Source: an uncultured Eubacteriales bacterium
GTDB lineage: Bacteria; Bacillota; Clostridia; UMGS1840
Direction of reading: 5' to 3'
Assembly (NCBI GenBank): GCA_900555525.1
Contig: USLP01000056.1
Coordinates: 1-7,719 of the forward strand
Length of the DNA: 7,719 nucleotides
A program made the position numbers and the translations under genes. Shown here one piece after another: positions 1 through 7,719 of the stretch (positions are counted from its first letter, which is position 1; every line of letters begins with the position of its first letter). The notes beneath the pieces are model-generated. The model had not been told where the DNA came from. It saw only the letters and a list, made by a program, of their open reading frames with translations, and made no database searches.

Positions 1-316
1 CGCAAAAATGCCCGATTGCATTTCTGCACCAATAACAGCTGCCGCACAGCTTATTAGGGTCAACGCAAACTCTGTCGCCGACGTTTACATTTTTTACGTT
101 TTTTCCGATTTCGGTAACAATACCCGAAAATTCATGCCCTAAAACTGTACCTTTCGGGGTTGCCGCCGCTCCCTCGTCGCCGTCAAATATATGTATATCC
201 GTACCGCAAATTCCGCAAGCCATAACCTTAATAACAATCTCATCATCATTAGGATGAGGTATTTTTAAATCTTCGATTTTCAAGCTTTCTTTTCCGTAAA
301 ATACTCCTGCTTTCAT
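1..316 (-). CDS. Zinc-dependent alcohol/polyol dehydrogenase, N-terminal part (runs off left edge)
   Basis: This is the first 105 codons of a medium-chain zinc dehydrogenase, which oxidises alcohols or polyols with NAD(P). The start reads MKAGVFYGKESLKIED. The catalytic zinc ligands are visible as Cys37 in GICGTD and His61-Glu62 in VLGHEFSG. The structural zinc lobe has Cys91, Cys94, Cys97 and Cys105 with the usual 3-3-8 spacing. The Rossmann half lies outside the window. The ATG overlaps the stop of the upstream PHP gene as ATGA, and a ribosome site AAAGGCGG lies 7 bases before it, so the two are probably translationally coupled. The substrate cannot be read from this part. A sugar-alcohol dehydrogenase of the sorbitol or galactitol-phosphate type is my inference from the divergent DeoR regulator and the phosphatase partner. 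Confidence 0.93.
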   Translation of the reverse strand, partial: MKAGVFYGKESLKIEDLKIPHPNDDEIVIKVMACGICGTDIHIFDGDEGAAATPKGTVLGHEFSGIVTEIGKNVKNVNVGDRVCVDPNKLCGSCYWCRNAIGHFC

Positions 317-1149
317 ATTGTTTCCGCCTTTCTTCCGCATGGTACTGCGGTTCTGTTTTTATAATAATAAACGTTTTCAAAACCTACTTCACAAAGCATT
401 TTGTATGCGCTTTCAAAGCTATTGGCGCAATTTTCGGCTATATGAGCATCAGAACCCAAGGTAATCAGATAGCCGCCAAGCTCCTTATAGCGTCTTACGA
501 TACTTTCGCACGGCATAAATTCACAATATGCGCTGTTCGGAAAAACGTTTGATGTGTTGACTTCGAGCGCAATGTTTTTTTCAATAATAAGCTTCAAAAT
601 CTCATCAATTTGCTTACTGTAAGCATCGAGCGGAACAAGAATTTTATATTTTCCGCTTATATAACGAAGCGGACACGTAAGATGCGCCAATATATCAAAA
701 TCACATTTCGTAATCATTTTTTTCATATCGTGAAAATATTGACTTATATAAATGCCTATTTCATCTCTCGGCATTTTTGAAAAATCTATCTGCGAATACG
801 GCATAGTGTAATTTTTGTATCTCACCGCATGAACCGAGCCTATAATAACGTCAAAATTATTTTGTTTGATGATTTTTTCCGTAATATCGCCGTGCCAAAA
901 GCCCTCCCCTATCTCTGTTCCGCAAATCGCTCCCAAAGCGCGTGCGCCTGTGGCAGAGTTTTTGGCAATTTCAAAAACGTCAACTGTATCGCAGTACTCA
1001 ATGTCGCAGTGGTCGGTAACGGCAAATCCGCAAAGACCGTGTTTTTTTGCCGAATGTGCCATATCCGAAAGCTTACAGACCGAATCGTGCGAATGTTCGG
1101 AATGGGTGTGCATATCATAAATACACATATTTTCGTATGAATCAATCAT
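313..1149 (-). CDS. PHP-family phosphoesterase, histidinol-phosphatase-like
   Basis: A 278-residue protein of the PHP superfamily, metal-dependent phosphatases with a distorted TIM barrel. All motifs are present: HTHSEHS at residues 14-20, TDH at 45-47, Glu79 in GTEIGE, GSVH at 104-107, AH at 155-156, LEVNTS at 195-200 and GSDAH at 232-236. The length fits the HisJ/HisK class. No histidine biosynthesis genes are nearby. Its partner is a zinc dehydrogenase (ATGA overlap) and the divergent gene is a DeoR regulator, so a sugar- or polyol-phosphate phosphatase is more likely than a histidine enzyme; this is inference. The ATG at 1149 follows AAAGGA by about 10 bases. An earlier ATG inside the leader hits a stop after four codons. 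A strong promoter lies just upstream. Confidence 0.9.
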   Translation of the reverse strand: MIDSYENMCIYDMHTHSEHSHDSVCKLSDMAHSAKKHGLCGFAVTDHCDIEYCDTVDVFEIAKNSATGARALGAICGTEIGEGFWHGDITEKIIKQNNFDVIIGSVHAVRYKNYTMPYSQIDFSKMPRDEIGIYISQYFHDMKKMITKCDFDILAHLTCPLRYISGKYKILVPLDAYSKQIDEILKLIIEKNIALEVNTSNVFPNSAYCEFMPCESIVRRYKELGGYLITLGSDAHIAENCANSFESAYKMLCEVGFENVYYYKNRTAVPCGRKAETI

Positions 1150-4139: not shown

Positions 4140-4148
4140 CTTATGAAA

Positions 4149-4988
4149 ATGGAAAAGATAAAGCAAGAATCTTTGACAGGTGAAAGAGCATTGTTTATGG
4201 GAGAAAATCTCTGTATTGAGGACACGGTTTTTGCGGACGGTGAATCACCGCTTAAGGAAAGCAAAAACATTAAGCTTTACGGCTGTATGTTCAAATGGAA
4301 ATATCCGCTTTGGTACAGCAATGATATATATCTTGAAGACTGCATACTCTTTGACACGGCACGTGCGGGAATTTGGTACACGAAAAATATAAACTTAAAG
4401 GACACGACCGTAGAAGCGCCGAAAAGCTTCAGACGTGCGGAAAACATAATCCTAAACAACATAGTTTTTCCGAATGCTTACGAAACGCTTTGGAATTGCG
4501 GGCATGTTTCCATGAAAAACGTATCTGCTCACGGCGATTATTTCGCTATGAACAGCTCGGACGTAAAAGCCGAAAATTTCAGTCTTGTCGGGAATTATTC
4601 TTTTGACGGTGCAAAAAACGTTGAAATAAGAAATGCAAAAATGCTTTCAAAAGATTCTTTTTGGAACAGTGAAAACATTACCGTTTACGATTCATATATA
4701 TCGGGCGAATATCTCGGCTGGAATTCAAAAAATCTCACGCTTATAAACTGCACGGTTGAAAGCCTGCAAGGTATGTGTTATATAGACAATCTCACAATGA
4801 AAAACTGCAAGCTTATAAATACCTCGCTTGCGTTTGAGTATTCCACGGTTGACGCAGACATAACCTCAAAAATAGACAGCGTGATGAATCCGTCGGGCGG
4901 AATTATCCGCGCGGAGCATATTGACACGCTCATTATGGAAGCGGACAAAATAGACAAGACGAAAACAAAAATAATTGTCAGGGCATGA
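4149..4988 (+). CDS. DUF3737 family protein (predicted beta-helix)
   Basis: A 279-residue protein from the preferred ATG at 4149. I recognise it as DUF3737 from features such as LTGERALF, DGESPLKESKNIKL, FKWKYPLWY, GIWYTKNI, NAYETLWNC and SGEYLGWNSKN. The chain is built from about twenty-residue repeats of alternating Asn-rich turns and hydrophobic strands (ENI, KNI, KNL), typical of a right-handed parallel beta-helix. There is no signal peptide or membrane segment, so it is probably cytoplasmic. The biochemical function of the family is, to my knowledge, unknown. Its stop overlaps an ATG of the following frame, and it shares a promoter with the PLP C-S lyase downstream, which hints at a link to amino-sulfur or related metabolism (inference). 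Confidence 0.9.
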   Translation: MEKIKQESLTGERALFMGENLCIEDTVFADGESPLKESKNIKLYGCMFKWKYPLWYSNDIYLEDCILFDTARAGIWYTKNINLKDTTVEAPKSFRRAENIILNNIVFPNAYETLWNCGHVSMKNVSAHGDYFAMNSSDVKAENFSLVGNYSFDGAKNVEIRNAKMLSKDSFWNSENITVYDSYISGEYLGWNSKNLTLINCTVESLQGMCYIDNLTMKNCKLINTSLAFEYSTVDADITSKIDSVMNPSGGIIRAEHIDTLIMEADKIDKTKTKIIVRA

Positions 4989-4990
4989 AC

Positions 4991-4995
4991 GGGGG
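4991..4995 (+). promoter_or_regulatory. Ribosome binding site that sets the MalY TTG start
   Basis: GGGGG lies 7 bases before TTG at 5003. The ATG at 4985, which overlaps the upstream stop, has only AGGG one base away and adds six residues not expected in the family. Confidence 0.65.
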
Positions 4996-5002
4996 TATAA
5001 AA

Positions 5003-6163
5003 TTGAAATATGATTTTGATACTGTAAACGACAGACGAAACACAAATTCGCTCAAATGGTCGGTGAATGACAGTGAACTTCCGATGTGGGTTGCGGATAT
5101 GGATTTTAGGACAGCCCCCGCTGTTACGGAAGCAATCCTTGATAGAGCGAAGCACGGCATATTCGGCTATAATATTGTGCCGGACGAGTGGTATTTTGCA
5201 TATATGAACCGGTGGAAAAGCCGTTATAATTTTGAAATCAAAAAGGAATGGCTGATATTTTGCACGGGTGTTGTTCCTGCTGTTTCAAGCATTGTGCGAA
5301 AGCTGACAACCCCTGCCGAAAACGTTCTTTTACTTACGCCTGTTTATAACATTTTCTTCAATTCCATTGTAAACAACGGGCGAAATGTGCTTGAATGCAG
5401 GCTGAAATATGACGGAGAACGTTATGAAATCGATTTTGACGATTTGGAGAATAAGCTTTCAAATCCGCAGACTACCATGATAATTTTCTGCAATCCGCAT
5501 AATCCTATCGGAAAAATCTGGTCTAAGGAAACATTAAAAAAAGTCGGAGGTCTTTGCAAAAAGCATAACGTTATCGTTGTAAGCGATGAAATTCATTGCG
5601 ATTTAACGAAAACGGGAAAAACATATACTCCTTTTGCATCAGCATCGGAGGAATGTAAAATGAACAGCATAACCTGCATTTCGCCGACAAAATCGTTCAA
5701 TCTTGCAGGCTTGCAGACTGCCGCCGTCATGATTCCGAACGAATATTTGAGAAACAAGGTAAACCGAGGTCTTAATACGGACGAAGCGGCAGAACCGAAC
5801 TGCTTCGCCGTGCAGGCGGTAACGGCGGCATACGGTTTGGGCGGTGAATGGCTTGACGAGCTGCGCAAATATTTGGACGAAAACCGCATGCTTGTCTCCG
5901 ACTTTATAAAAGCCGAGCTTCCCATGCTTAAGCTTGTAAAATCCGAAGCGACGTATCTTTTGTGGCTCGACTGTTCCTCCATTTGCAAAAATTCAATCGA
6001 ATTGGCGGAGCATATAAGAAAGAAAACAGGGCTTTTTCTCTCGGACGGCGCTCAATACGGCTTGGGCGGCGAACAATTCCTGAGGCTTAACATAGCATGC
6101 CCGAAAGCTGTGCTAAAGGACGGTTTAAACCGCTTGAAAAAAGCGATTCTTATGATAAAGTAA
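5003..6163 (+). CDS. MalY/PatB-family PLP-dependent C-S beta-lyase or aminotransferase
   Basis: A 386-residue cytosolic fold-type I PLP enzyme, full length for the family. It begins LKYDFDTVNDRRNTNSLKW, read with TTG as Met, which matches the usual MalY/PatB N-terminus. Counting from the TTG, the key motifs are MWVADMDF (28-35), GYN (55-57), CNPHNPIG (163-170), VVSDEIHCDL (192-201) and SPTKSFNLAG (227-236). Lys230 is the PLP lysine, and Arg361 in FLRLNIACP should bind the substrate carboxylate. Family members cleave cystathionine or cysteine conjugates to give a thiol or H2S, pyruvate and ammonia; some act as aminotransferases. The gene is coupled to the DUF3737 gene and ends in a hairpin terminator. 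An ATG start at 4985 is possible but less likely. Confidence 0.93.
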   Translation: MKYDFDTVNDRRNTNSLKWSVNDSELPMWVADMDFRTAPAVTEAILDRAKHGIFGYNIVPDEWYFAYMNRWKSRYNFEIKKEWLIFCTGVVPAVSSIVRKLTTPAENVLLLTPVYNIFFNSIVNNGRNVLECRLKYDGERYEIDFDDLENKLSNPQTTMIIFCNPHNPIGKIWSKETLKKVGGLCKKHNVIVVSDEIHCDLTKTGKTYTPFASASEECKMNSITCISPTKSFNLAGLQTAAVMIPNEYLRNKVNRGLNTDEAAEPNCFAVQAVTAAYGLGGEWLDELRKYLDENRMLVSDFIKAELPMLKLVKSEATYLLWLDCSSICKNSIELAEHIRKKTGLFLSDGAQYGLGGEQFLRLNIACPKAVLKDGLNRLKKAILMIK

Positions 6164-6215: not shown

Positions 6216-6320
6216 AGTCTGAAAGAAAATCGTTCATAGTGCCGCTTTGCAGTAAGGGTGCTGTACGACATTGTACCGCCCCGAACAAAAAGTGGTGCTA
6301 TGGGCGATTTTATAAAGACT
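6216..6320 (+). other. Long imperfect palindrome of unknown role
   Basis: Positions 6226-6248 pair with 6289-6311 over 23 consecutive pairs (18 Watson-Crick, 5 G-U) when read as plus-strand RNA. An outer AGTCT/AGACT pair (6216-6220 with 6316-6320) extends it. An inner stem has GTAC (6263-6266) with GTAC (6273-6276), flanked by further GC pairs. Its right end touches the stop codon of the glmS-like frame. It could be a miniature transposable palindrome, a structured RNA or a 3' barrier between convergent genes. No U-tract follows on either strand. Confidence 0.6.
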
Positions 6321-7719
6321 TATTCTACTGTAACGGATTTCGCAAGGTTTCTCGGCTTATCTATATCACAGCCTCTTTCCTTGGAAATATGATATGCAAT
6401 CGACTGGAGCGGAAGAATAAGAAGCGACGGCATAAGCATGGGAACAGTTTTGGGGATATAATAGATATAGTCCGCAACGTCCTCCGTAACCGTTTCGCCC
6501 TCTGCCAAAAACAGCACCACGCAAGCGCCTCTCGCCTTAACCTCTTTAATATTGGAAATTGTCTTTTCCATAAGCTCCTTTTGCGTTGCAAGCGCCATAA
6601 CGAGCGTACCGTCCTCAATAAGAGAAATTGTGCCGTGTTTAAGCTCGCCTGCCGCATACGCTTCGGAATGAATATAAGAAATTTCCTTAAGCTTCAGCGA
6701 GCCCTCCATGCTGAGCGCATAGTCAACTCCCCTGCCGATGAAGAACACGTCCTCTTTATCCTTGAATTTTTTGCCGTAATCGCTGAAAATCTGCATATCT
6801 TCAAGAATTTTTTTCATTTGGAACGAAAGATTTTCAAGTCCGTCAACAGCGTTTTTGATTTCTTCGGGAGTAACCGTTCCCAGAATATCACCCATATACA
6901 AGCTTAAAAGATAAATAACGGAAAGCTGTGCGCTGTATGCTTTCGTGGTAGCAACGGCTATTTCGGGGCCTGCCCATGTATAAATAACCTTGTCGCTTTC
7001 TCTTGCAATGGAGCTTCCCACAACGTTTACGATGCTTATCGTCATTGCGCCCTTGCGTTTTGCCTCACGAAGAGCCGCCAATGTATCTGCCGTTTCGCCC
7101 GACTGGCTTATTGCTATAAACAGCGTGCCTTCGTCCACAATCGGGTCTCTGTATCTGAATTCCGACGCAACGTCAACCTCAACGGAAATGCGGCACATTT
7201 TTTCCAAAATGTATTTTCCGACAATTCCGACATGATAAGCCGAACCGCAGGCAACGATATATATTTTTCTGAAAGCTTTAAGCTGTTCGGAAGTAAATTC
7301 AATATCGTCAAGCTTTATTTTTCCGTTTTCTATTCTCGGCAAAATTGTCTTGCTGACCGCTTCGGGCTGTTCAAAAATTTCTTTAAGCATAAAAACACAG
7401 CTGGTTTTTCCTTTAACTCCTGTAACTTCAATTTTGGGAATATCATTGCCCCAGTTTTTCAGAAGTTCTTTAATTATTTCGTGATGGGTTAAAAAAGTAT
7501 AATTTAGGGAAGGATTATACTTTTCAATATCTCTTTTAGTTAAAGGCAAATGAACCGGATAGATTACTCTTAAATTTCCATTTAGGTTATTTAAATAGTC
7601 CAAATCTATGACTTTAACATTATAAACCTCTAGCATTTTTTTATCAACACTTTTCAAAGTGTTGTAAATGTCGTAGGCATAGACTGTTTCGTCTTTTTTT
7701 GCAAGGCTGACGGCTATTT
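6320..7719 (-). CDS. glmS: Chimeric frame: GlmS isomerase (SIS) half joined to a Mur-ligase-like fragment (runs off right edge)
   Basis: The C-terminal 356 residues (7390 to 6320) are the isomerase half of glutamine-fructose-6-phosphate aminotransferase, which makes glucosamine-6-phosphate for peptidoglycan. It starts MLKEIFEQPEAV, the usual linker after the glutaminase domain. The first SIS domain has VACGSAYH and SQSGETADT. The second has GRGVDYALSMEGSLKLKEIS, then YIHSEAYAAGELKHG. It ends DKPRNLAKSVTVE with the conserved lysine, so this half is complete. The N-terminal glutaminase domain with its catalytic Cys is absent. Instead the frame continues through GVKGKTS (7420-7400) into a Mur-ligase-like N-terminus and stays open to the edge of the window. 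TTG (7657) or ATG (7636) could serve as starts, but the true start is probably outside. The gene symbol applies to the C-terminal part only. Confidence 0.85.
   Translation of the reverse strand, partial: IAVSLAKKDETVYAYDIYNTLKSVDKKMLEVYNVKVIDLDYLNNLNGNLRVIYPVHLPLTKRDIEKYNPSLNYTFLTHHEIIKELLKNWGNDIPKIEVTGVKGKTSCVFMLKEIFEQPEAVSKTILPRIENGKIKLDDIEFTSEQLKAFRKIYIVACGSAYHVGIVGKYILEKMCRISVEVDVASEFRYRDPIVDEGTLFIAISQSGETADTLAALREAKRKGAMTISIVNVVGSSIARESDKVIYTWAGPEIAVATTKAYSAQLSVIYLLSLYMGDILGTVTPEEIKNAVDGLENLSFQMKKILEDMQIFSDYGKKFKDKEDVFFIGRGVDYALSMEGSLKLKEISYIHSEAYAAGELKHGTISLIEDGTLVMALATQKELMEKTISNIKEVKARGACVVLFLAEGETVTEDVADYIYYIPKTVPMLMPSLLILPLQSIAYHISKERGCDIDKPRNLAKSVTVE
7376..7393 (-). other. Chimera junction at shared Phe-Met-Leu-Lys-Glu-Ile codons
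   Basis: The switch falls within TTTATGCTTAAAGAAATT. GlmS proteins normally read HFMLKEIFEQP or HYMLKEI here, and Mur-type proteins can read a hydrophobic FMLKEI helix right after the P-loop. The reading frame is preserved across it. A shared stretch of this length suits a short-overlap assembly join or a microhomology recombination. Confidence 0.6.
7391..7719 (-). other. Mur-ligase-like segment resembling methanogen CfbE (coenzyme F430 synthase), fragment
   Basis: The upstream part of the chimeric frame reads IAVSLAKKDETVYAYDIYNT at the edge, consistent with an N-terminal Rossmann domain, and ends with IEVTGVKGKTS, a Mur-ligase P-loop. It is cut off immediately after that, so it lacks the central ATPase and C-terminal ligase domains. 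It resembles the Mur-ligase-like CfbE of methanogenic archaea from memory; no search was done. By hand count, 7501-7680 has 50 G+C in 180 bases (28%), against about 47% in three sampled 60-base rows of the GlmS part (6361-6420, 6481-6540, 6901-6960). Its leucine codons are mostly TTA, TTG and CTA. Confidence 0.6.

What the first reader, a model, noticed from the sequence alone, without database searches (positions are those of the whole stretch)
6320..7719. In-frame chimera of bacterial GlmS isomerase half and an archaeal-type Mur-ligase fragment
The sequence shows a complete GlmS SIS half without its glutaminase domain, preceded in frame by a P-loop-containing, AT-rich segment (28% G+C by hand count) that I recognise as closest to the methanogen CfbE type. 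The truncated Mur part ends just past the P-loop and could not be a working ligase. Methanogens and Clostridia share gut habitats. The join lies in about 18 bases plausible in both genes. I rank an assembly chimera first, recombination second and a functional fusion third. If real, it would be an ammonia-dependent GlmS isomerase with a new nucleotide-binding front end.
Basis: partly seen in the sequence, partly recalled or inferred. Interest (0 to 1): 0.85.

Follow-up and report, generated by a model that had tools for sequence, protein, structure and literature searches.

The report
Archaeal-bacterial chimeric contig join, not gene
The end of this bacterial DNA piece carries part of a methanogen-type gene joined in frame to part of a bacterial cell-wall-sugar gene at a short motif that close relatives of both genes carry, which is most likely a sequence-assembly (or library) error rather than a real fused enzyme.

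Summary
In detail: window 6320-7717 (minus strand) is one open frame of 465 codons whose front 114 residues are CfbE (coenzyme F430 synthase) and whose last 357 are the isomerase half of GlmS; the two counts share six residues. Each half has a nearly identical intact relative elsewhere: CfbE P0001, Methanobrevibacter-like, 110 of 114 residues; full-length GlmS P0121, 354 of 357. Both carry FMLKEI exactly at the join. From the neighbouring residues, the DNA the two could share is at most 21 bases (7374-7394). Words of 20-21 bases are expected by chance about 8-30 times between two genomes of assumed size and composition, and such an overlap is what a short-k de Bruijn assembler needs. A search with the segment spanning the join listed these two and no fusion (listing capped at 120). 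P0043 is another CfbE chimera, with a release factor, in another contig. I conclude an artefact chimera, assembly before library. Not a new enzyme.

The parts
7395..7717 (-). Unambiguous CfbE part (corresponding to P0001 residues 15 to 122), methanogen-type, open at the window end
   Evidence: NF033197 E 2.1e-27; 110 of 114 residues identical to P0001 over the fusion's first 114 residues
7400..7420 (-). P-loop GVKGKTS of the CfbE part
   Evidence: codon map; all 120 listed front-piece hits match the P-loop pattern
7374..7394 (-). Join: longest stretch that both parents could share base for base (core FMLKEI codons 7376-7393, 18 nt; at most 21 nt)
   Evidence: bound worked out from protein relatives, parents' DNA not seen
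6320..7373 (-). GlmS isomerase half (two SIS stretches) to its own C terminus ...DKPRNLAKSVTVE and stop; no glutaminase domain before it
   Evidence: SIS E 1.2e-54; 354 of 357 residues (from the shared FMLKEI on) identical to full-length GlmS P0121

Best explanation
This is most likely an assembly chimera: an assembler would have walked from the glmS gene of a Clostridia-like bacterium into the cfbE gene of a Methanobrevibacter species through a word of about 20 bases that both genes likely carry by chance. Shown: both halves, their near-identical intact protein relatives, the FMLKEI residues common to both at the join, the 21-base ceiling on shared DNA (given those relatives' neighbouring residues), and no fusion in the listed hits of a join-spanning search. 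Inferred: that the parents' DNA agrees over that stretch, that a short-k de Bruijn step (or, less likely, a library chimera) made the join, that both organisms lived in one sample, and the bacterium's class. The confidence given is for an artefact of either kind; the library variant's 0.15 lies inside it. No new enzyme is needed.
For: Front 114 residues: 110 identical to CfbE P0001 (471 aa); 8 of 120 listed hits carry an organism name, all Methanobrevibacter. Rear 357 residues: 354 identical to P0121, a 621-aa GlmS with glutaminase and SIS domains. At the join the relatives read CVFMLKEILID and EHFMLKEIFEQ, the window CVFMLKEIFEQ; likeness to each runs up to this motif and ends there. Neighbouring residues cap the shared DNA at 21 bases; about 30 shared 20-base words but 5e-5 shared 30-base words are expected by chance between genomes of assumed 2.0 and 2.5 Mb at 31% and 42% G+C (simple composition estimate). 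A search with fusion residues 80-145 listed P0001, P0043 and P0121 first and no fusion; 0 of the 312 proteins held has both halves by motif. G+C changes from 44.1% to 30.7% at the join. The join lies about 325 bases from the window end. P0043 has the same CfbE sequence joined to a bacterial-type release factor in another contig at another point, with an internal 21-residue gap. Passages read: PMC8171044 calls a stretch common to two similar species a 'chimeric node' of the graph; PMC3901335 reports chimeric contigs at all taxonomic levels in simulated viral communities.
Against: No reads, coverage or assembler name for the window were available. The parents' DNA was not retrieved (one search found no cfbE locus and no close glmS), so synonymous differences within the 18-base core are untested; the core's Leu codon CTT is not the CfbE piece's commonest (2 of 13 Leu codons there, against 95 of 207 in the window's other coding stretches). 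The same passages say that assembly chimeras tend to join close relatives and that few joined viruses to bacteria, and the chimeric node is defined there for similar species, so a cross-domain join is not the usual case. The join is in frame, as one chance join in three would be. Whether the window is a whole contig is not known. The protein collection is clustered at 90% identity and listings are capped at 120, so a fusion could be hidden.
Confidence: 0.95

Rival explanations
1. Library chimera: the two DNA fragments were joined in the tube (ligation, PCR template switching or multiple displacement) at the same microhomology, before sequencing. Its odds are counted inside the 0.95 for an artefact.
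For: A short shared stretch at the join fits template switching too. P0043, another CfbE chimera with an internal gap, shows that rearranged forms of this sequence exist in another contig.
Against: A single molecule's join would rarely dominate an assembly (general reasoning); the possible shared length (at most 21) sits at the word size of common short-k assembly (k = 21, recalled). This is only a matter of degree.
Confidence: 0.15
2. Real illegitimate recombination in a bacterium: a Methanobrevibacter cfbE fragment replaced the front of glmS, leaving a hybrid reading frame, possibly a pseudogene.
For: The frame is open across the join; methanogens and Clostridia share gut habitats (general knowledge).
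Against: An intact GlmS 354/357 identical exists on another contig. No fusion was listed. Both parts have drifted little from intact relatives (4 of 114 and 3 of 357 differences), and the bacterium would lose a gene that is normally essential (recalled).
Confidence: 0.03
3. A functional fusion: a GlmS isomerase with a CfbE-type nucleotide-binding front end.
For: Open frame and complete SIS half.
Against: Only about 17 of the 216 residues of P0001's Mur middle domain remain (112-327; likeness to CfbE ends at residue 128), so the ligase site is not complete; no other example listed; glutaminase domain missing.
Confidence: 0.01

Closest known systems
CfbE, coenzyme F430 synthase (NCBIfam NF033197), as in Methanobrevibacter
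   Same: Front 114 residues, 110 identical to P0001; P-loop present
   Different: Stops just after the P-loop; scores 106.1 bits against a cut-off of 250
GlmS, glutamine--fructose-6-phosphate transaminase (TIGR01135)
   Same: Rear 357 residues, 354 identical to P0121; two SIS stretches; C terminus intact
   Different: No glutaminase domain, although the frame still passes the model's cut-off (441.9 against 418.05 bits)
Chimeric metagenome contigs (PMC8171044 and PMC3901335; passages read)
   Same: Sequence of two species joined in one contig, through a short common stretch
   Different: The papers describe joins mostly between related species; here the halves look archaeal and bacterial and the common stretch is at most 21 bases, so chance rather than homology would supply it

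Membership tests
CfbE (NF033197) | Whole-protein score above the curated cut-off of 250 bits | tested here: not met
   106.1 bits, profile positions 12-130 of 430 only
CfbE (NF033197) | N-terminal part and P-loop | tested here: met
   Front piece E 2.1e-27; GVKGKTS at 7400-7420
CfbE (NF033197) | Complete Mur middle and C-terminal parts | tested here: not met
   P0001's Mur_ligase_M spans 112-327; the fusion leaves CfbE at residue 128
GlmS (TIGR01135) | Two SIS stretches and conserved C terminus | tested here: met
   SIS E 1.2e-54, two stretches; match to profile end 607/607
GlmS (TIGR01135) | N-terminal glutaminase domain with the initial Cys | tested here: not met
   No GATase match in the fusion; present in P0121
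Genuine gene fusion | Seen in independent contigs or genomes | tested here: not met
   Join-spanning search: 289 hits among 825 candidates, 120 listed, no fusion among them; 0 of 312 proteins held carry both halves by motif. A fusion hidden in a 90% cluster or below the listing is not excluded
Chimeric contig | Each side near-identical to a separate intact relative, both carrying the motif at the join | tested here: met
   110/114 and 354/357; shared FMLKEI, at most 21 nt
Chimeric contig | Identical DNA in both parents over the join | tested here: inconclusive
   Parents' DNA not obtained; only the upper bound of 21 bases could be worked out
Chimeric contig | No or few reads across the join, depth step | not testable with these tools
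   No reads held; no whole genome held for the window

The most novel reading that the evidence does not exclude
A cross-domain recombinant gene in a gut bacterium in which a Methanobrevibacter CfbE nucleotide-binding front replaced the glutaminase of GlmS, giving an amidotransferase-free isomerase under a new N-terminal control.
Probability: 0.01. Interest if true: 0.7.

Novelty: not a real feature. Interest (0 to 1): 0.04.

Why it matters
It matters only as a caution. An in-frame, domain-like 'fusion protein' can likely arise from a chance word of about 20 bases shared by an archaeon and a bacterium, and could enter protein databases as a novel architecture. The test used here (cap the shared stretch from the relatives' neighbouring residues, then search with the join-spanning segment) is quick and general.

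Tried and rejected
A look at the window's own whole genome was not possible (none held). DNA of the parents was sought and not obtained: the genome-contig scan with a CfbE+GlmS query used six short patterns, 68 stretches matched and 4 encode a relative: three with GlmS at 53-57% identity, one with a 24% match to the CfbE part, and no cfbE close to the window's. Viral contigs: 15 stretches matched, none a relative. Phages: no match. Plasmids: 9 records, all under 60% identity; of the 5 listed, 3 are annotated as Mur-type ligases and 2 carry no annotation. E. coli genomes: no match in 'near' mode. A draw of 291 genomes of the class of G002 gave a match to P0121 at E 0.001 or better in 271, many of them too weak to be glmS; the best listed are 62% identical, so the host species was not reached. 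The eight copies fetched (L013-L020) each match P0121 in one piece from residue 10-14 to 621. In the 20 loci then held, tblastn at E 1e-10 found GlmS in 11 and neither CfbE nor any of the window's other seven genes in any; most of these loci have flanks of only about 1.5 kb. No Rfam match in the window at gathering scores. The CfbE model gives matches in 4 of 4 bacterial genomes and 12 of 14 control genomes, over its cut-off in 0 of 4 and 2 of 14; the call does not say which two, and the weak matches are presumably other Mur ligases. Considered and rejected: an archaeal gene transferred whole (the CfbE part stops in mid-domain), functional fusion, natural recombination. Paper searches were seen as listings; from 26 and 27 three papers were opened for passages only. 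k = 21 as a common smallest word is recalled. No structure was predicted.

Full report
What was checked. The window's minus-strand frame 6320-7717 is open for 465 codons and runs off the window's end. Its last 357 residues are the GlmS isomerase half with two SIS stretches and the intact C terminus; its front 114 correspond to residues 15-128 of CfbE, coenzyme F430 synthase. The two counts overlap by the six residues FMLKEI. The two pieces searched apart give the same answer: CfbE E 2.1e-27 for 7391-7717 and GlmS E 6.9e-131 for 6320-7390. Pfam by itself finds no family in the front piece. G+C is 30.7% for 7391-7719 and 44.1% for 6320-7390; third-position G+C is 28% (first 103 codons) and 47% (from codon 111).

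Where each half comes from. The front piece was searched with candidate lengths fitting whole proteins: 526 proteins at E 0.01 or better, 120 listed. The best, P0001 (471 aa), is identical at 110 of 114 positions. Eight of the 120 listed carry an organism name, and all eight are Methanobrevibacter. The rear piece (only the 7,987 candidates sharing most words were scored, 120 listed) is best matched by P0121 (621 aa), identical at 354 of 357 positions and carrying a glutaminase domain. 113 of the 120 listed GlmS-like proteins have MCGI within their first 30 residues. Two of those 120 carry an organism name, Oscillospiraceae and Ruminococcaceae, both at 66% identity. That the window's bacterium is Clostridia-like is inferred from these two. 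The window's other genes (alcohol dehydrogenase, PHP, DeoR, EamA, AraC, DUF3737, aminotransferase) were named by Pfam only; their origin was not tested.

The join. CfbE P0001 reads ...GKTSCVFMLKEILIDKN..., GlmS P0121 reads ...DGYEHFMLKEIFEQPEA..., and the window reads ...GKTSCVFMLKEIFEQPEA.... The six residues FMLKEI belong to both. FMLKEI follows the P-loop in 102 of the 120 listed CfbE-like proteins, but is present in only 7 of the 120 listed GlmS-like ones by the pattern used, which 116 of them match in some form, so the sharing looks like chance, not homology. Using the relatives' neighbouring residues (His before the motif in GlmS, Leu after it in CfbE), no choice of codons lets both agree with the window over more than 21 bases, 7374-7394. 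At simple base composition two genomes of assumed 2.0 and 2.5 Mb with 31% and 42% G+C are expected to share about 30 words of 20 bases and about 8 of 21, but only 5e-5 of 30. A join at up to 21 shared bases is thus what a de Bruijn graph with a short word could make; k = 21 as a common smallest setting is recalled, not looked up. That the parents agree at every base of the core is inferred, since their DNA was not obtained. Against it, mildly: the core's Leu codon CTT is used at 2 of 13 Leu codons in the CfbE piece (95 of 207 in the window's other coding stretches).

Is the fusion found elsewhere? A search with fusion residues 80-145, which straddle the join, gave 289 proteins among 825 candidates, 120 listed. 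The top three are P0001 (73% identity over 80% of the segment), P0043 (97% over 55%) and P0121 (100% over 56%): no listed protein matches both sides well. None of the 312 proteins listed in the three searches has both the CfbE P-loop and the GlmS motifs. The collection is clustered at 90% identity and the listings are capped, so a hidden fusion is not excluded.

A second chimera. P0043 (619 aa, contig of 2,647 bases) has the P0001 sequence with an internal gap of 21 residues and then, after residue 272 of P0001, a release factor (PCRF and RF-1 domains). It suggests that joins between this CfbE and unrelated genes occur in other contigs at other points, as expected of artefacts and not of one evolved fusion. 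Whether P0043 is itself an artefact was not tested.

Could it work? P0001's Mur middle domain spans residues 112-327 and the fusion leaves CfbE at residue 128, so little beyond the P-loop remains. CfbE closes the last ring of F430 with ATP (PMC7242693, passages read). The GlmS half lacks the glutaminase domain, which in GlmS supplies the ammonia (general knowledge).

Literature. Passages read describe stretches common to two similar species as chimeric nodes of assembly graphs (PMC8171044) and chimeric contigs at all taxonomic levels in simulated viral communities (PMC3901335). The latter also says that chimeras tend to join close relatives and that few joined viruses to bacteria, so a cross-domain join is unusual, though a chance word explains it. 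No search was made for a published CfbE-GlmS fusion as such; the CfbE search listed four papers.

Limits. No reads, no assembler name and no genome for the window. Whether the window is a whole contig is not told; if it is, the join lies about 325 bases from its end. Verdict: artefact chimera, 0.95, the library variant included.

Noticed in passing
P0043 (protein collection; contig of 2,647 bases): The same CfbE sequence as P0001 with a 21-residue internal gap, joined in frame to a peptide chain release factor: another likely chimera.
   Followed up: partly
window 4143-6163 (+): DUF3737 frame (4143-4988) and a class I/II aminotransferase frame (4985-6163) overlap by four bases, as in coupled genes; Pfam gives DUF3737 no known function.
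   Followed up: no
P0001 (protein collection): Its cluster holds 2,409 member sequences although one contig is given, far more than the others in the list; perhaps a very abundant Methanobrevibacter strain.
   Followed up: no
window 2-340 (-): Alcohol dehydrogenase gene cut off by the other end of the window.
   Followed up: no
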